From Actinomycetaceae bacterium (lineage in GTDB: Bacteria; Actinomycetota; Actinomycetes; Actinomycetales; Actinomycetaceae), in assembly GCA_028724905.1 (NCBI GenBank), contig JAQYTG010000019.1, forward strand, positions 1-64,000: 64,000 bases of DNA. Reading direction: 5' to 3'. The notes below the pieces were generated by a model, which was not told where the DNA came from, did no database searches, and saw only the letters and a list, made by a program, of their open reading frames with translations. The position numbers and the translations under genes were made by a program. Shown here in pieces: positions 19,365 through 33,950 of the stretch; position 1 is the first letter of the stretch, and the number at the start of each line of letters is the position of its first letter.

Positions 19365-20873
19365 CTAGAACTCTCGGTCGGCCGATTCTATCAGCCGGCC
19401 GAGAGTAGCTTCATCTGGAAATCCCTGCACATTCCAGCGTGATGGCCACGCCATCGGATCGCGGACGATTCCTTGAGGCCAAATTTCCCGAGCCACCTGC
19501 GAGCGAATCGTGATGCGCACACCGTTCGGGTTTTCCCACGGGTGCGGAGACGGCTCGCGGACAAAAGAGATGAAATCGGTATCTGGGATGGATCCTCGCA
19601 CATCCATAGCGTTCCATTCCGTGGCGCTCACCCGCTGCCCTGAATGCATCCGGCGAGGTGTGTAGCTTTTCAGCTCGCCAAAATCGCAATCCGTCCAGCT
19701 GGAGAGTGCCTGAACTTGCTGGGCATAAATCTCCTGGCGAAAACTGTTGCGCAATGCTCCTAGCACCTGCGCAAGCTCAGAATCTGCAAAAGGCACCCAT
19801 TCTTTCCAACCGTCCGCCGTCACGGTATGAGGCAGCGGATAGACGGCCTCGGGGCTACGGCGTTGAGTGAGTAGTATTTTGAAAAAGTCTACCAAGTGGG
19901 GATCTTCGCTAAAGACCACATACAACTTTGTACGGGCAGCAGGCACAAAAAGCGGAATATCGTTCGGGTGGCGTTCATGCAGCCGCTGCGCCACCTGTAT
20001 CATCATCTCCACATCGCAAAACCACGAGAGCTCATAGTTATCAGGAGCAAGAAAAGTGACGACGTCTGCACCAGATATTCTCGAAAGCCCAAGATCCACT
20101 GAGAGCCGCTGATGGCCAACCAACTGGCGCAGGGCATTCACTGATTCAGCGAGCAAACTTCCCACGTCGGATGGTACCTGCTCCATCTGTGAATAGTAGA
20201 TGGGCTGAATTACGTCGGGTCTATCCAGTGCCAGCCCTACCCCCACAAAATCCGTGAGTGGCACATAGACCATCGAATCGTCTCCACGATGGGAATTGAC
20301 GAAGTAATCGGCAGCGCGCACGATCGGCACGATTGTGGGATCTTCCTCCCACATCGGGGCTAGCTCACCGGCTTGAGTTGGTATATCTCCTGGTACATCT
20401 CCTGCGGGATTCTCGCGTGAATCTGCGGCCATATATGCCGCTGCCTCACCGTTGCTGGCGCTACCCCCGCCGTTGCCGTCAGCGCCATTAATGCCGCTAT
20501 CACGGCCATCTCTGCCACGGCCATCGTTACCGCTGGCTGGAGTTGGAGCTGAAGTCATGGCCGCAGCCGAACTTGCATCTGGATCCGCAGTAGAAGCAGC
20601 AGTCGAACCCGCAGTCCCATTGTCGTGTTCACCGCTAGCGCCGGAGAACTTCGCTGCTTTGGCCTGCTCCACTCCAATGCTAATAAGGCGGTAGAGAAGC
20701 TCAGCCCGTTCTACCTCGGGGGCATCCTCCGCGATAAACACTCCTGGGCGAAAGCGGAATGTGCGCCCATCAGGCAAGAGCACGTCGAGGGATTCACCAT
20801 CTGCCGTGACGATAGCGCCCGCAAGATCGGGATGCTCCACAGCTTTGTCGAGTGCCCACTGCACAAAATCCAT
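19365..20873 (-). CDS. Uncharacterised two-part protein with a disordered linker
   Basis: A 502-residue protein of unknown function. The first 80 residues are a compact domain (WALDKAVEHPDLAGAIVTADG). Residues 85-170 are a Gly/Ser/Ala/Asp/Asn linker, and the last 320 residues form a larger domain beginning DPTIVPIVRAADYFV, with VYVPLTDFVGVGLALDRPD and DVVTFLAPDNYELSW. The VPIVR segment faintly recalls YtpQ/DUF1444 proteins, too weakly to assign. No signal or membrane segment is present. ATG at 20873 is used; an upstream GTG at 20912 has no better ribosome site. It follows no obvious operon. Confidence 0.55.
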   Translation of the reverse strand: MDFVQWALDKAVEHPDLAGAIVTADGESLDVLLPDGRTFRFRPGVFIAEDAPEVERAELLYRLISIGVEQAKAAKFSGASGEHDNGTAGSTAASTADPDASSAAAMTSAPTPASGNDGRGRDGRDSGINGADGNGGGSASNGEAAAYMAADSRENPAGDVPGDIPTQAGELAPMWEEDPTIVPIVRAADYFVNSHRGDDSMVYVPLTDFVGVGLALDRPDVIQPIYYSQMEQVPSDVGSLLAESVNALRQLVGHQRLSVDLGLSRISGADVVTFLAPDNYELSWFCDVEMMIQVAQRLHERHPNDIPLFVPAARTKLYVVFSEDPHLVDFFKILLTQRRSPEAVYPLPHTVTADGWKEWVPFADSELAQVLGALRNSFRQEIYAQQVQALSSWTDCDFGELKSYTPRRMHSGQRVSATEWNAMDVRGSIPDTDFISFVREPSPHPWENPNGVRITIRSQVAREIWPQGIVRDPMAWPSRWNVQGFPDEATLGRLIESADREF

Positions 20874-20965
20874 AGCTACATTCTCGCATATTTTGGATGA
20901 AGTGCCACTCACCGCAGAGCGCAGAATCTGCTAAGTACCCGTTAATCCACGATATGTTCCTGAGC

Positions 20966-21739
20966 CTACTCTTCTTCCTCTAGCTCACCCACCATCTCAT
21001 AGAGTTCCCCAGCAGTGAGCTGAGATTTTTCCTCGGCGGAGAAATCGTGCACGATCGCACCGCGGTTGAGCACCAGCATCCGATTGCCCAGCTCCAGAGC
21101 ATCTTTCAAATGGTGCGTAATCATAAAGGCGCTCAAGTGCTTTTGCTCGATGGTCTTTTGGGTAAAATTCAGCACCACCTTGGCGGTCTTCGGATCCAAT
21201 GCCGCCGTGTGCTCATCGAGTAAGAGCAAACGCGGCTCTTTCATCGTCGCCATCAGTAGCGTGATGGCCTGACGCTGCCCACCAGAAAGCACTCCAATGG
21301 CGGTGTCTAAGCGCGATTCTAGCCCTAAGCCTAGCGGCGCCACGAGCTCTCTAAATTCCTGCCGTTTTTGCTCGCTCATAGAGATCCGCAGTCCGCGATT
21401 TTCTCCGCGTTTCTGTGCGAGAGCTAAGTTTTCAGCCACCGTCATTCGCGGAGCTGTGCCCATTTTCGGATCTTGAAATACTCGCCCGATCAGCGCTGCG
21501 CGGTCTTCCTCGGCTCTATCCGTCACGTCGGTACCATCTATGAGCACTCGCCCTGAATCCACGGGGATGGCTCCGGCGATGACGTTGAGCAGCGTAGATT
21601 TGCCCGCTCCATTGCCGCCCACCACCGTGATGAAATCTCCCTCAGCCACCTCCAGGCACACATCTGCGAGTGCTTGAAAGGCATCTGCCGTGCGCTGATG
21701 AAAAGTCTTATTGACGTGTTCGAGAGTTAAAACGTTCAC
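20966..21739 (-). CDS. Tryptophan ABC importer, ATP-binding subunit
   Basis: A 257-residue ABC ATPase with Walker A GGNGAGKST (about residues 41-49), signature LSGGQRQ and Walker B LLLLDEHTAALDPKT. It belongs to the branch paired with PF04392 binding proteins and LivH-like permeases. Its ATG overlaps the permease stop by four bases. It is the third gene of a three-gene operon preceded by a tryptophan leader attenuator, so it should energise tryptophan uptake (TrpZ-like). Confidence 0.85.
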   Translation of the reverse strand: MNVLTLEHVNKTFHQRTADAFQALADVCLEVAEGDFITVVGGNGAGKSTLLNVIAGAIPVDSGRVLIDGTDVTDRAEEDRAALIGRVFQDPKMGTAPRMTVAENLALAQKRGENRGLRISMSEQKRQEFRELVAPLGLGLESRLDTAIGVLSGGQRQAITLLMATMKEPRLLLLDEHTAALDPKTAKVVLNFTQKTIEQKHLSAFMITHHLKDALELGNRMLVLNRGAIVHDFSAEEKSQLTAGELYEMVGELEEEE

Positions 21740-23001
21740 CGCTGCGCTCCTTTTTCGTTGGCACTATTGGCTTTCTCGCCACTATCTGCGGCGCTAGATT
21801 TCTCGCTGACGGCGGTTTCCCCAGAGCTGAGGTTGGTTTCCTCAGAGTTATAGCTCATCGCATCAGCTCCGGAGGATTGTCTGTCCGCGCTAGCCGCGTC
21901 CACCCTGACCGCTCTCCCGTCGCTAACTCTCCTAGTGCCATTGCTGGTCACTCCAATTCCGGCTGCAGCCGGTTGTCCGTCCGCGTTAGCCGCCTCAATT
22001 CCGGCTGGTTGCTCGCCTATGTTGGCCACCTCAGCTCCGTTCGCACTGGCGGAGCTCACCTCAGCACCAGCAGCAACTGCTACCGAGGTCTGCTCAGTGC
22101 GAACGCTGGGATGATGCTGGTTTGCCCGACGTGTTTGCGTGCGCGAGAACCACTGCTGGAGCGCAGGGATGGACAGACACAAGCCCAAGATAACGGCGGA
22201 AAACAGTTTGAAATGATCTGTATTGACGTTGAGCATCAGCACCAGTGCCAGCAATAAACGATAGATCACCGAGCCGAGGAAGATAGCCAGCAGACGCACG
22301 GGTAAACTCACGTTTTTCACCAGCACTTCGCCGATAATAATGGCCGCCAGGCCAATCACGATAGAGCCCACTCCCATAGAGATATCGGCGTATCCGTTAT
22401 CTGTGGCCACCAGATATCCTGAGAGTGCAATCAGACCGTTACCCATCATGTAGCCGAGCATCATCATTTCTGCAGAGGGAATCCCCAGCGCATTTGCCAT
22501 CACGGGGTTGTCTCCCGTGGCGATGAGCGCTTGCCCCATGTCTGTGCGGAAGAAAACGCCCAAGATGGCCACGGCCACGGCGATGACCACCATGCCGATC
22601 AGCAACGTATCCACATTGCGTGGTAGATGCATTCCAGAGATCATTGATTTGAGCGTAAACTGCGAGGATATTGAGATATTCGCCCGCCCGAGGAACACTA
22701 GATTCACCGAATAGAGGCCGGTCATGGTGATAATGCCCGCCAAGAGCGAGTTGATGTGTACGCGGGTGATGAGTAGTGCCGTCACTGCTCCTGCTGCTGC
22801 GCCGATGAGTAACGCTACCAGCCCTGCAAGCAGCGGATGCATCCCCAGTAGCAGCAGCTGTGCGCCGGTGGCAGCTCCGAGGGTAAACGACGATTCTGTG
22901 GTGAGGTCTGCTTCGTTGAGCACCCGAAAGGTGATGTACACTCCGATGCCCATAATCGTCCAAATAGCTCCTTGTGAAAGAGCTGAAAGAAGAATATCCA
23001 C
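21736..23001 (-). CDS. Tryptophan ABC importer, permease subunit with a hydrophilic tail
   Basis: A 421-residue permease. The first 290 residues form about eight to nine helices of the LivH/BPD_transp_2 type, with the coupling-helix region GIPSAEMMMLGYMMGNGLIALSGY. The last 130 residues, after the final helix, are a low-complexity Ala/Gly/Ser/Asp/Asn/Glu tail with repeats around ADGQPA and ADRQSSGAD; related permeases end at about 290-300 residues. The tail would lie in the cytoplasm. Gaps are 28 bp to the binding protein and a 4-base overlap to the ATPase. TrpY-like by context. Confidence 0.85.
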   Translation of the reverse strand: MDILLSALSQGAIWTIMGIGVYITFRVLNEADLTTESSFTLGAATGAQLLLLGMHPLLAGLVALLIGAAAGAVTALLITRVHINSLLAGIITMTGLYSVNLVFLGRANISISSQFTLKSMISGMHLPRNVDTLLIGMVVIAVAVAILGVFFRTDMGQALIATGDNPVMANALGIPSAEMMMLGYMMGNGLIALSGYLVATDNGYADISMGVGSIVIGLAAIIIGEVLVKNVSLPVRLLAIFLGSVIYRLLLALVLMLNVNTDHFKLFSAVILGLCLSIPALQQWFSRTQTRRANQHHPSVRTEQTSVAVAAGAEVSSASANGAEVANIGEQPAGIEAANADGQPAAAGIGVTSNGTRRVSDGRAVRVDAASADRQSSGADAMSYNSEETNLSSGETAVSEKSSAADSGEKANSANEKGAQR

Positions 23002-23029: not shown

Positions 23030-24199
23030 CTATTTCTTCACGGGATTCATATCAATAGCATCAGCGGTGACGGCGGTCGGGATTGTGATCCCCAGAGCTG
23101 CGGCCTGCATGCTGTTGATGAACTTATTGGAGATGGTGCTCACTTTCACTGGATAAGTGCTCACATCGGCACCTTCGATGACGTCGGCTGCCACATCTCC
23201 CGAGTCCGCTCCCCACAAGTACTGGTTGAGCCCTACGGTGGCGAGGCACCCTGCTTCCACCATCGCATCAACGGTAGGGTAGAGCCCTACTTTATGAGCA
23301 GTAGCGGTGGGAACGAGAGTATCAAGCGCTCCAGCGATGGTGTTGTCTTGTGGCAGATAGATGGCATCCACCTGGGTAGCAAGCTGCTCAGCCACTTGTT
23401 TTAAATCGTTTGTGGAGGTAATCGTGGCTTCTTTGAGCGTGAATCCCTCACCTGGGGCGATCTGGCGAATGCTTTGCACTTGCTGCACAGCATTTTGCTC
23501 AGAAGTGTTGTAGAGCACGCCAAGCCGCTGAGCGTCAGGCTGAATCTCTTTAATGAGTTTGAGGGTTTCGGCGTTGCTGTTCGCATACGTGGCACCGCTG
23601 ACGGGTTTGCCAGGATTCTTCAAATCGTTCACCAATCCTGCTCCCACTGGATCGGAGATACCAGCAAACACCACTGGCACCTCTCCTTGAGCGGAGTTCA
23701 TCAGTGCCTGTGCAGCTGGGGTGGCAATGCCGATCAGCAGATCTTTGCCATCAGCCATAAAGTTATCGGCAATGGTTTTCAGCAGATTTTGATCGCCTTG
23801 CCCCTGCTGGTATTCGATCTGCATATTGATGCCGTTCATATATCCGCGTTTAGCTAGTTGATCGAGCAAGCCGTAGCGGATGTCATCCAGCGAGGGGTGC
23901 TCCATAAACTGCAAGATCCCCACTTTCAACACATCCCCATGTTTGAGCAACGGATTGTTGGGATCGAGTTGCTTGACCTGCCCACTGGCCATGATGCGAT
24001 CAGCTCCGATGGGTTTGTAGTTGGTTGGCACGAGATCGCCCCCGAGCGTACCTGCGGCTACCCGCTCAGCACCTGGCTTATTCTGGGCACTTGCACCGGC
24101 CTTTTCTAACTCATTGAGCCGTTGTAGTGACGGCATCACCAGCAGTAACACCAGCAGCGCCCCCACAAGAAATGAACCGATCGCGGTTATTTTCTTCAT
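23030..24199 (-). CDS. Tryptophan ABC importer, substrate-binding protein
   Basis: A 389-residue extracellular binding protein of the ABC_sub_bind family (PF04392), the type of the streptococcal tryptophan/tyrosine protein TrpX. It starts MKKITAIGSFLVGALLVLLLV, a membrane anchor without a lipobox Cys, so it may stay tethered by the uncleaved signal. Family marks are LKVGILQFMEHPSLDDIRYG, VPVVFAGISDPVGAGLV, LGVLYNTSEQNA and DAIYLPQDN. ATG at 24199 has AAAAGGA ten bases upstream and is preferred over the TTG at 24208. The leader peptide upstream argues for tryptophan as substrate. Confidence 0.88.
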   Translation of the reverse strand: MKKITAIGSFLVGALLVLLLVMPSLQRLNELEKAGASAQNKPGAERVAAGTLGGDLVPTNYKPIGADRIMASGQVKQLDPNNPLLKHGDVLKVGILQFMEHPSLDDIRYGLLDQLAKRGYMNGINMQIEYQQGQGDQNLLKTIADNFMADGKDLLIGIATPAAQALMNSAQGEVPVVFAGISDPVGAGLVNDLKNPGKPVSGATYANSNAETLKLIKEIQPDAQRLGVLYNTSEQNAVQQVQSIRQIAPGEGFTLKEATITSTNDLKQVAEQLATQVDAIYLPQDNTIAGALDTLVPTATAHKVGLYPTVDAMVEAGCLATVGLNQYLWGADSGDVAADVIEGADVSTYPVKVSTISNKFINSMQAAALGITIPTAVTADAIDMNPVKK

Positions 24200-24428
24200 C
24201 TTTCTCAATCCTTTTCAACGTGTTATCGACGCCCTAATACTTCGACGTCCTATACTCTGATGCCGCACGGTTTGCTATCCGTTTGCCTGCGGCTTGTAGT
24301 TTTCAGTGGTGATCTTTGGTTTTCATTGCAAACATGATTCATCGCAAGTATTGCCGGCTTTCATCAGTGCCATACAAGTGCTCTACCAAGCACGATGCCA
24401 GTGCAGTGCAGCGTTCGCGGCATGATAA

Positions 24429-24454
24429 AAGCCCTCGCGGTGATCGGAGGGCTT
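24429..24454 (-). terminator. Attenuator terminator of the tryptophan transporter operon
   Basis: On the minus strand AAGCCCTC (24454-24447), a 10-base loop and GAGGGCTT (24436-24429) are followed by further T residues. The stem is perfect for 8 bp. It lies 80 bases after the leader-peptide stop and 230 bases before the first structural gene, where a transcription attenuator belongs. Its loop contains CGATCAC (24446-24440), complementary to GTGATCG at 24497-24491 upstream, which could form the competing antiterminator. Confidence 0.85.
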
Positions 24455-24533
24455 CAAAATTTCCAGTGAATGTGATTCTTCAGCACTGCACGATCACTTG
24501 CTCACGGCGATCTATGCAGCCAGACTGGCTCAG

Positions 24534-24596
24534 CTAGGCAGATCGCCAACCAAACCAGCTACGCCAACGCGCAACCATCGCGCATTCCCGAACCAT
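24534..24596 (-). CDS. trpL: Tryptophan-rich leader peptide (TrpL-like)
   Basis: A 20-residue peptide, MVRECAMVARWRSWFGWRSA, with Trp at positions 11, 14 and 17. The ATG at 24596 is preceded by the strong ribosome site GGAAAGGAAG. Three tryptophans in seven residues is the hallmark of a leader peptide where ribosomes stall when charged tRNA-Trp is scarce. The last Trp codon lies in segment GGCGATCT (24547-24540), which pairs perfectly with AGATCGCC (24513-24506) downstream, so ribosome position would control later folding. Known Trp leaders usually precede trp biosynthesis genes; here the target is a transporter. Confidence 0.85.
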   Translation of the reverse strand: MVRECAMVARWRSWFGWRSA

Positions 24597-24625
24597 ATCG
24601 CTTCCTTTCCTTGTGCTTTAGTAAA

Positions 24626-24654
24626 AACATAGCAGCGGCCTATGAGTGACGCAA
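24626..24654 (-). promoter_or_regulatory. Promoter of the leader-transporter operon
   Basis: On the minus strand TTGCGT (24654-24649) and TATGTT (24631-24626) are separated by exactly 17 bp. Transcription would start near 24619, about 20-25 bases before the leader ATG, a good distance for a leader peptide. Confidence 0.6.
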
Positions 24655-24914
24655 ACACGATCCCCATTGTGAAATAACTGCACTCATTCTGCCCAGATAT
24701 GGCCGAATATCTACGGATAGCTGCTCCGCACTTACGCGCTGCGGGTGCGGGCTCATGCGGAGTATGTACTGTGGAAGCACCTCAGGCGTGCAAGGTTCTC
24801 TCATCTTGTAGGACGCCTCAGCTGTGCGGGGTTCTCCAGTCGTGTGAGCTGCCCAGCCGCCAGAATCTCACTGCGAAAATGCACGATCCAGCTGCGCAAT
24901 AATAAACTAATCCC
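24655..24914. other. Divergent region before the RND gene
   Basis: A 260-bp stretch with two imperfect copies of a unit running GCACCTCAGGCGTGCAAGGT / ACGCCTCAGCTGTGCGGGGT at about 24778-24835. No small gene or clear rightward promoter was seen. Confidence 0.35.
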
Positions 24915-32459: not shown

Positions 32460-33234
32460 TCACGGACATCTAGATTCTAGTTGTTGAGGCACGGCTGAGC
32501 AAAAGCGCGCGGTGAAAGTATGACATACGCGAGGTGTGGTATACGAGAAATATGGAATGGTGCAGAAATTCTGCCCGTGTGGAGCATCAGCGTTCCTCTG
32601 GCTCTATCGTGTAAAAACGTCCTCATCAATCACATACCTCGCCGATCACATACCCCACCGATCGCCTACCTTACTAATCGTGTACCTCACCAATCGCAAC
32701 CTCACCATCATCCGCCTTAGTAATTACCTAGGAGAATCGCGTTGAGCATTGAAGGGCTCAAACATGGAGACCCCTTCAATCATCTGCCTTACTCATCACC
32801 TGGGGGAATTACTTGGGGGAATTACTTGGGGGAATCACTTGGGAAAATCACCTAGAGGTCTGCCTGCCTGTACTACACTGCGCACCCCATCGTCGCGCCT
32901 ATCGTCGTCCCCTCACCGATCACTTAGTGACGCCGGTGCCGGTTATCGTCGGCGAGTACTTAGTGATGCTGGTCGCCAGGCATCGAGCCGCAAGATATCT
33001 TCGACGAGCGCTTAGTTTTAACGAGTACCTAGCTTCAACGAGTACTTAGTTTCGTCACAATGGGCGCGCCAGCATCATTGTATTAACTAATCAGTACAAA
33101 AAAGGATTATAGTCCTCGCACTAACAATCCATCTCGTACTACAGATTTAACTATCTGGATGGTACATAAGGTGAGTGCCACAGATGCCTGTTCACTGCGA
33201 AGCGTTGAGTGGCAAAACATCAAAGGAGATGCGC
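32460..33234. repeat. Repeat-rich intergenic region with a 13-bp tandem array
   Basis: Four head-to-tail copies of the 13-mer ACYTGGGGGAATY occupy 32798-32849, with a degenerate fifth. Upstream (32635-32720) are variants of CACATACCTCGCCGATCAC, and downstream (32915-33055) about five variants of GAGTACTTAGTTTCAAC. No open frame has a ribosome site except the one that begins at 33235. The last 100 bases are AT-rich and may hold the promoter of the pseudogene. Confidence 0.7.
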
Positions 33235-33950
33235 ATGATCACTGAAAACCAAAGAACGAAGAGGAGTTTCACCGCTACCTCATGGAAATCCGTGAGTTGG
33301 TGGAGGGGCCATTCGATCAAATGTAAAACGAAATCGAGGTGACGAATAAGTTCCCCGATGAATTCTATGAGCTGGCTAAGAAGCACAACCTCTACCGCTT
33401 CTATATGCCTGAAGAGTACGGCGGGTGGGGATTTAGCACTCTCGAAATTATGAAAGTGCAAGAAGAGTTTTCTCGCGGCCCAAACGTGTTCATCGGATAT
33501 CTCAACCAGCCTGAACTCACGCAGCAGGTGCTCGATTCGGATGGTTGGTATTACAGCGGCGATCTGGCGGTAATGGACGAAGAGGGGTATATCAAGATCA
33601 CTGGTCGCAGCCGTGACACGATCATTCGGGGTGGAGAGAATATCAGTGCCGCAGAAATTGAGCGGGTGCTGATGGAACATCCGGCGGTGTTGCAAGCTGC
33701 CGTGGTGGCTATGCCGGATCGGCGGCTAGGGGAGCGAGTCTGTGCTTTTCTTGTGGCTCGATCTGGCGCTTTGCATTTAAGCCTTGAGGAGATCACGCAC
33801 TATTTCAATCGAGTGGGAGTGGCGAAATATAAAATCCCCGAACGGGTGGAGTATCTAGAAGCTATGCCAGCGACGAGTTCTGGAAAGATCGCTAAAGGCT
33901 GCTTACGCGCCCTTGTGCAGGAGCGGGGATATCGCGCTGTGCGTGAATGA
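33235..33950 (+). pseudogene. Deletion-fused relic: acyl-CoA dehydrogenase N-terminus joined to an acyl-CoA ligase C-terminus
   Basis: The start is still good (AAGGAG, ATG at 33235), but three lesions follow. An A-run indel near 33250 shifts the frame after MITENQ. The restored frame, with an acyl-CoA dehydrogenase N-terminus (EEEFHRYLMEIRELVEGPF), meets TAA at 33324-33326. It then continues as NKFPDEFYELAKKHNLYRF and MPEEYGGWGFSTLEIMKVQ. At EEFSRGP (about 33480) it changes abruptly to the C-terminal third of an AMP-forming ligase: NVFIGYLNQPE, DGWYYSGDLAVMDEEG, GRSRDTIIRGGENIS and the catalytic-lysine region SSGKIAKG. Both families occur side by side in carnitine-type catabolic clusters. A GTG at 33339 could still give a 203-residue chimera without either active site. 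Confidence 0.85.

What the first reader, a model, noticed from the sequence alone, without database searches (positions are those of the whole stretch)
24429..24654. Tryptophan transporter operon controlled by a Trp-codon leader peptide and attenuator
Seen directly on the minus strand: promoter boxes 17 bp apart, a strong ribosome site, a 20-codon leader with three Trp codons in seven positions, a perfect 8-bp segment 1:2 pair that starts inside the last Trp codon, and a perfect 8-bp terminator stem with a T-run 80 bases later. A 7-bp complementarity links the terminator loop to a segment before it. Ribosome-mediated attenuation is well known for trp biosynthesis; here it precedes an ABC importer with a PF04392 binding protein, which fixes the substrate as tryptophan and makes uptake respond to charged tRNA-Trp. 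The antiterminator would partly use the terminator loop rather than its stem, an unusual geometry.
Basis: partly seen in the sequence, partly recalled or inferred. Interest (0 to 1): 0.85.

Follow-up and report, generated by a model that had tools for sequence, protein, structure and literature searches.

The report
Tryptophan-sensing switch on tryptophan importer
In front of the genes for a likely tryptophan importer in an Arcanobacterium-like bacterium sits a 20-codon mini-gene with three tryptophan codons, followed by mutually complementary RNA segments and a predicted transcription terminator, which together would switch import on when loaded tryptophan tRNA runs short; relatives in two bacterial families carry tryptophan-codon mini-genes in front of the same kind of importer.

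Summary
On the minus strand a 20-codon leader ORF (24596-24534; Trp at codons 11, 14, 17) with a good ribosome site precedes a terminator hairpin (24454-24427) and a trpX-trpY-trpZ-like ABC importer operon. Comparison makes it more than a chance pattern: the same leader, Trp positions, pairing boxes and terminator precede orthologous operons in two further genomes of the genus and one of another Actinomycetaceae genus. Two genomes of a third genus have an unrelated, classic WWW attenuator there, and 12 genomes of a second family have another Trp leader. A strict leader test is met at 14 of 20 loci of this TrpX clade and at 2 of 56 other PF04392 loci. The mechanism is most likely ribosome-mediated transcription attenuation of tryptophan uptake, here apparently as a relay of four boxes, the last being the terminator loop. 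The relay pairs form in 4 of 4 sequences. Folding supports the predicted direction strongly in G148 but weakly in the window's own sequence. There are no expression data. Trp attenuators are known for actinobacterial trp operons and trpS; my ten paper searches listed none on an importer. New variant of a known kind.

The parts
24626..24654 (-). Candidate promoter: TTGCGT (24654-24649), 17 nt, TATGTT (24631-24626)
   Evidence: read from sequence; -10 and spacing kept in G002 and G005; not listed by the consensus scan
24599..24612 (-). Ribosome binding site AAGGAAAGGAAGCG
24534..24596 (-). Leader ORF MVRECAMVARWRSWFGWRSA with UGG at codons 11 (24566-24564), 14 (24557-24555) and 17 (24548-24546)
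   Evidence: same Trp positions in G002, G005 and G148
24532..24551 (-). H0: Trp-codon hairpin GGTTGGC-gatct-GCCtAGCT, predicted to hide box 1 when no ribosome is present
   Evidence: one two-sided change kept
24539..24547 (-). Box 1, GGCGATCTG
   Evidence: pairs with box 2 in 4 of 4 homologues
24506..24520 (-). Box 2 and its 5' extension, GCTGCATAGATCGCC
   Evidence: pairs with box 1 or box 3 in 4 of 4 homologues
24485..24497 (-). Box 3, GTGATCGTGCAGT
   Evidence: pairs with box 2 or box 4 in 4 of 4 homologues
24440..24446 (-). Box 4, CGATCAC, mainly the loop of the terminator hairpin
24427..24454 (-). Terminator hairpin AAGCCCTC-CGATCACCGC-GAGGGCTT with T-run
   Evidence: stem kept by a two-sided change in G148 (by eye)
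23030..24199 (-). trpX-like binding protein (PF04392), likely ATG at 24199
   Evidence: PF04392 E 4.7e-73; nearest NCBIfam model TrpX, below its cut-off
21736..23001 (-). trpY-like permease (PF02653)
20966..21739 (-). trpZ-like ABC ATPase (PF00005)
19365..20912 (-). Possible fourth gene, 515 aa, no Pfam family; also follows trpZ in G002
   Evidence: 87% identity over 333 aa

Best explanation
The minus-strand leader at 24654-24427 is likely a ribosome-mediated transcription attenuator that would raise transcription of the predicted tryptophan-import operon trpX-trpY-trpZ when charged tRNA-Trp is scarce. Shown: the leader ORF, the Trp codons, four complementary boxes (each holds GAUC in G000 and G148), the hairpin with T-run, the operon, and their conservation in four genomes. 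Predicted: with ample tryptophan the ribosome reaches the stop codon and covers box 1, so box 2 pairs with box 3, box 4 stays free and the terminator forms. Without translation, hairpin H0 hides box 1, with the same result. With too little charged tRNA-Trp the ribosome stalls at codon 11 or 14 and leaves box 1 free; box 1 captures box 2, box 3 is released and captures box 4 (the terminator loop) plus part of the terminator's 5' arm before the 3' arm is made, and polymerase reads through. Untested: actual stalling, termination, read-through and the substrate. I give the attenuator reading 0.85 and this particular relay about 0.45.
For: Leader, Trp positions and stop codon conserved in G000, G002, G005 and G148. 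A second, unrelated Trp attenuator (WWW, classic segments) before the orthologous operon in G096 and G103 and Trp leaders before TrpX in 12 of 12 f3 loci. Strict leader test 14 of 20 clade loci, 2 of 56 other PF04392 loci, 0 of 5 tandem second copies. All 35 tested pairs of H0-H3 form in all four sequences, 140 of 140 cells. Conserved stems of 7 bp or more: 5 against a mean of 0.19, 0 of 300 column shuffles. Pairing of the terminator's 5' half with upstream RNA is higher for ribosomes at Trp 11/14 than for none/stop in 4 of 4; mean difference 0.267, 0 of 150 shuffles. G148 gives a clean predicted switch. The upstream neighbour is divergent, so the terminator has no upstream gene on its strand to serve.
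Against: No expression data. The window's own RNA is a poor switch at equilibrium: antiterminator 1.00, 0.96, 0.96, 0.75 for Trp 11, 14, 17 and stop, 0.02 with no ribosome, and its difference (0.08) is reached by 14 of 150 shuffles; without a ribosome its 5' half is already 0.74 paired upstream. G002 shows no box 3:4 pairing at any position and G005 only 0.07-0.10. In full-length RNA the terminator wins at every position in all four, so antitermination must be kinetic. The pair-shuffle control is uninformative with four sequences (500 of 500 for H1+H3, 114 of 500 for H0+H2). The U-tract is short and the -35 box weak; neither scan listed them. G153 and G154 have no clear leader. NCBIfam TrpX cut-off not met. 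Footprint size was assumed.
Confidence: 0.8

Rival explanations
1. A Trp attenuator with another antiterminator: the leader ribosome works as described, but the terminator's 5' arm is captured by a different upstream stretch, and the box 3:4 match is a by-product of repeated GAUC boxes or a loop contact compatible with the terminator.
For: G002 shows stall-dependent pairing of the 5' half (0.38-0.39 against 0.13-0.17) without box 3:4 pairing. Other GAUC boxes can also pair with each other.
Against: Box 3:4 pairs in 4 of 4 with three wobble-type changes, and forms with probability near 1 in G148 and G000 at Trp 11 and 14.
Confidence: 0.3
2. The leader acts mainly through the released short RNA or peptide in trans, as described for rnTrpL and peTrpL of Sinorhizobium, with attenuation secondary.
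For: The leader peptides of the four relay-type genomes are similar in sequence; a trans-acting Trp leader peptide is in print (PMC7298713, listing and start of abstract only).
Against: Box pairing and terminator are conserved with the peptide; G096 and G103 have an unrelated peptide at the same operon.
Confidence: 0.06
3. A chance short ORF in front of a fixed terminator that only lowers expression, with no tryptophan response.
For: The 200-nt fold is not unusually stable and the promoter and terminator scans miss the elements.
Against: Conservation across genera and association with the TrpX clade, and unrelated Trp leaders at the same operon elsewhere.
Confidence: 0.05
4. A T-box or another tRNA-binding leader controls the operon, as in Streptococcus suis.
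For: trpXYZ of S. suis is under a Trp T-box (PMC9382623, passages).
Against: No T-box or other bacterial RNA family in the window at gathering scores, and none in 24380-24700 at E up to 10.
Confidence: 0.01

Closest known systems
Classic trp attenuators of Corynebacterium and Streptomyces trp operons and S. avermitilis trpS2 (PMC1262725, part 1 of 3 and searched passages seen); E. coli trpL (recalled)
   Same: Short leader with clustered UGG codons, competing hairpins, intrinsic terminator; G096 and G103 leaders have this classic layout
   Different: Target is an importer, not biosynthesis or a synthetase; the window type has one relay step more and captures the terminator loop
T-box-controlled trpXYZ of Streptococcus suis (PMC9382623, passages seen)
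   Same: Homologous importer, induced by tryptophan shortage sensed through tRNA-Trp charging, transcription termination
   Different: Direct tRNA binding to RNA, no leader peptide; no T-box found here
BmrB attenuator of the BmrC/BmrD ABC transporter of Bacillus subtilis (PMC4191407, listing and start of abstract only)
   Same: Ribosome-mediated attenuation in front of an ABC transporter operon
   Different: Responds to antibiotics and controls a drug exporter
His attenuators and T-boxes of Firmicutes his and hisZYX genes (PMC9413887, passages seen)
   Same: Leader peptides rich in the codon of the amino acid concerned; the text speaks of T-box and/or attenuator control of the his operon and/or transporter
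   Different: Histidine, Firmicutes; whether any attenuator there sits on the transporter itself was not clear from the passages

Membership tests
Ribosome-mediated (trp-type) transcription attenuator | short translated-looking ORF with clustered codons for one amino acid | tested here: met
   kept in G002, G005, G148
Ribosome-mediated (trp-type) transcription attenuator | intrinsic terminator between leader and first gene | tested here: met
   hairpin with T-run at 24454-24427, stem kept by a two-sided change in G148; not listed by the scan
Ribosome-mediated (trp-type) transcription attenuator | alternative antiterminator that depends on ribosome position | tested here: inconclusive
   pairs conserved 4 of 4; predicted switch clean in G148, leaky in G000, weak in G005, absent for box 3:4 in G002; overall effect 0 of 150 shuffles
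Ribosome-mediated (trp-type) transcription attenuator | read-through rises when the cognate charged tRNA falls | not testable with these tools
   needs expression or in vitro data
Ribosome-mediated (trp-type) transcription attenuator | operon concerns the amino acid of the leader codons | tested here: inconclusive
   nearest NCBIfam model is TrpX, E 6.7e-104, but 347.4 bits against a cut-off of 390
NCBIfam NF041285 TrpX (equivalog) | score at or above the curated cut-off | tested here: not met
   347.4 of 390 bits
T-box riboswitch, Rfam Trp leader and other Rfam families | covariance-model match | tested here: not met
   only tRNAs in the window at gathering scores; at E up to 10 in 24380-24700 only two sub-threshold eukaryotic families

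The most novel reading that the evidence does not exclude
A relay attenuator: four interchangeable GAUC-type boxes pass the ribosome's position down the RNA, so whether box 1 is free or covered decides whether the last box, the terminator's own loop, is captured from inside. Over the same importer, Actinomycetales have at least three dissimilar Trp-leader designs (relay, compact leaderless WWW, and WRGWRS type), putting tryptophan uptake under ribosome sensing where streptococci use a T-box.
Probability: 0.42. Interest if true: 0.66.

Novelty: new variant of a known kind. Interest (0 to 1): 0.52.

Why it matters
Textbook tryptophan attenuation is about synthesis. Here the same signal would govern uptake, in a genus where one leader-bearing relative shows no trpA gene (G005). 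Because this importer carries dissimilar Trp leaders in different genera and a T-box in a streptococcus, it is a natural set for asking how one regulatory demand is met by different RNA sensors. The relay geometry is compact and can be tested with a handful of point changes.

Tried and rejected
T-box or other known RNA family: no credible match. Reinitiation or translational coupling: the leader stop is about 335 nt before the trpX ATG. Terminator of an upstream gene: the neighbour is divergent. A leader at every PF04392 operon: no, 2 of 56 other loci pass the strict test, with unrelated-looking peptides. Two short leader-DNA matches, in G112 (21 bp) and G149 (about 28 bp), lie inside other ORFs with no TrpX match in those genomes's listing and were dropped. 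G154 has only WW inside a longer ORF without a ribosome-site match and G153 only a TTG-started YWYW ORF; counted as unclear. f3 leaders: 10 of the 12 were aligned; the consensus fold has little covariation (term 0.58; 3 of 40 pairs with a two-sided change); a terminator was seen by eye only in G542 and G653, so transcription attenuation is not established there. The trpDCFBA operon: only a one-Trp leader ORF, and no terminator-like site on the coding strand of L072:6300-7100. A sequence-only RNA model was built and not used, because the upstream regions of the eight f1 TrpX-clade loci were read directly. The 56 'other' loci are those for which searches returned DNA, after removing four duplicates (L086, L097, L102, L104); matches listed without a locus and two fragments (L123, L124) were not scanned.

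Full report
What is there. On the minus strand the window reads, in order: weak promoter boxes (24654-24626), a ribosome site, the leader MVRECAMVARWRSWFGWRSA* (24596-24534), about 80 nt, a terminator hairpin (24454-24427), 227 nt, and the genes of an ABC importer: a PF04392 binding protein, a PF02653 permease and an ABC ATPase. The binding protein is nearest to NCBIfam TrpX but below its cut-off (347.4 against 390 bits). Its nearest solved relative by sequence is 3lft (4.9e-62), which I recall as a Streptococcus pneumoniae protein with bound tryptophan. The genome also has a trpA gene, preceded by trpD-, trpC-, trpF- and trpB-like ORFs (named by eye), on the same contig.

Is it more than chance? 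ATG ORFs with a Shine-Dalgarno match and three Trp in seven codons occur twice in the window, against 0.03 per shuffle; with looser rules 24 against 3.97. The fold alone is not striking (z -1.73), and the consensus scans list neither the promoter nor the terminator. The decisive evidence is comparative.

Relatives. A leader-DNA search matched 6 of 213 family genomes: the window's, G002, G005, G148, and two short matches inside unrelated ORFs. In all four the leader precedes an orthologous TrpX gene, with Trp at 11, 14 and 17 and the stop codon at the same place. TrpX of G148 is 54-56% identical to the window's. Codons between its Trp codons differ, yet all three UGG remain.

The TrpX clade. 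Of 213 family genomes 57 have some match to the window's TrpX; a clade at 47% identity or more comprises G000, G002, G005, G148, G153, G154, G096 and G103, and the rest are at 39% or less. G096 and G103 carry a different, compact leader, MTYxNRQWWWLA*, whose ATG lies 7 nt after a TACGCT box that follows TTGACA by 17-18 nt (probably leaderless; by eye). It is followed by segments of the classic kind. With the transcript ending before the terminator's 3' arm, folding gives the antiterminator for a ribosome at any of the three Trp codons and none at the stop codon; in full-length RNA the terminator wins at every position. In a second family (f3, not named by the tool; Bifidobacteriaceae is my guess from genome size and order) 12 of 189 genomes have a TrpX-clade gene. 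All 12 have a leader: 11 with at least two Trp codons, typically ending WRGWRS*, and one with a single Trp (L115 by eye). The strict test (ATG, Shine-Dalgarno, two Trp within four codons) is met at 14 of 20 clade loci, 2 of 56 other PF04392 loci and 0 of 5 tandem second copies. Of the six clade loci that fail it, L038 and L039 have the WWW leader without a ribosome site, L108 has two Trp and a weaker ribosome site, L115 has one Trp, and L036 and L037 (G154, G153) are unclear.

The RNA. In the alignment of the four relay-type leaders, the 35 pairs tested in H0 (Trp hairpin), H1 (box 1:2), H2 (box 2:3) and H3 (box 3:4) form in every sequence, 140 of 140 cells; 14 further pair types occur, 13 of them wobble-type changes on one side and one a two-sided change in H0. 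Sliding the partners by 1-3 columns drops pairing to 14-48%. The shuffle of 3' letters is uninformative with four sequences (500 of 500 for H1+H3; 114 of 500 for H0+H2). Five conserved stems of 7 bp or more occur against a mean of 0.19, and 14 of 6 bp or more against 0.82; 0 of 300 column shuffles reach either (some of these stems are overlapping registers). The terminator stem is kept by a two-sided change in G148 while its loop keeps the complement of box 3 (by eye). GAUC occurs in all four boxes in G000 and G148; in G002 and G005 the variants GGUC and GAUU keep the pairing.

How it would work. Box 1 lies at leader nucleotides 50-58, after Trp 11 and 14 and just before the stop codon at 61. 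A ribosome at the stop codon would cover it; one held at Trp 11 leaves it free, and at Trp 14 nearly so; with no ribosome it can fold into H0. Transcripts ending just before the terminator's 3' arm were folded with an assumed footprint. Antiterminator (H3) probability for Trp 11, Trp 14, Trp 17, stop, none: G148 1.00, 1.00, 0.25, 0.00, 0.00; G000 1.00, 0.96, 0.96, 0.75, 0.02; G005 0.07, 0.10, 0.00, 0.00, 0.00; G002 0.00 throughout. When only box 2 has emerged, a ribosome at Trp 11 gives H1 at 0.99-1.00 in all four. In full-length RNA the terminator is at 0.99-1.00 everywhere, so antitermination has to be kinetic. An unbiased measure, the fraction of the terminator's 5' half paired upstream, is higher for Trp 11/14 than for none/stop in all four (difference 0.08, 0.24, 0.34, 0.41 for G000, G002, G005, G148; reached by 14, 10, 1 and 1 of 150 shuffles; mean 0.267, 0 of 150). 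In G000 that fraction is already 0.74 without a ribosome. The four are related and the footprint is assumed, so these are supports, not proofs, and the window's own sequence is the weakest case.

Known and new. Trp attenuators were predicted in Actinobacteria before trp operons and a trpS gene (PMC1262725, part 1 of 3 read; the words transporter, permease and uptake do not occur in its held text). trpXYZ of S. suis is under a T-box (PMC9382623, passages). Judged from titles, abstract starts and the passages I opened, the ten paper searches listed no Trp attenuator on an importer. A 2015 article by Korolev and colleagues on Trp attenuators in Actinobacteria, cited in PMC4833913, was not available to me and could be prior art. 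So the kind is known; the target, and the relay with capture of the terminator loop, appear to be a new variant.

Noticed in passing
L072:6455-6487 (G000:C19, outside the window) and L073:10248-10210 (G002): In front of the trpDCFBA-like operon both genomes have a short ORF with a strong ribosome site, MQFFYGRWRS* and MQFFDGRWRSYK*, with one Trp codon and the same WRS ending as the importer leaders. Possibly a second Trp leader; no terminator-like site on its strand.
   Followed up: partly
24534-24596; L023; L107-L117; L072:6455-6487: Leader peptides of different operons and two families tend to end in W-R-S or W-R-S-A. Whether this is a peptide or an RNA constraint is open.
   Followed up: no
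L038 and L039 (G103, G096): The WWW leader's ATG lies 7 nt after a -10-like TACGCT with TTGACA 17-18 nt upstream, so the attenuator transcript may be leaderless (by eye).
   Followed up: no
G000:C4:67548-68393 (L014), G002 (L013), G005 (L015), G001 (L009): A second, divergent PF04392 protein (34-35% identity to the window's) without a strict Trp leader.
   Followed up: partly
19365-20912: A 515-aa ORF without a Pfam family follows trpZ and is 87% identical over 333 aa to the ORF that follows trpZ in G002; role unknown.
   Followed up: partly
L118-L122 (G651, G652, G660, G659, G655): Five f3 genomes carry a second TrpX-like gene just downstream of the first, without its own Trp leader.
   Followed up: partly
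24200-24426: About 227 nt between terminator and trpX are not conserved with G002 or G005, except near the trpX ribosome site.
   Followed up: no
33229-33235 onward, plus strand: A second ATG ORF with a Shine-Dalgarno match and three nearby Trp codons; not examined, possibly a chance frame inside a gene.
   Followed up: no
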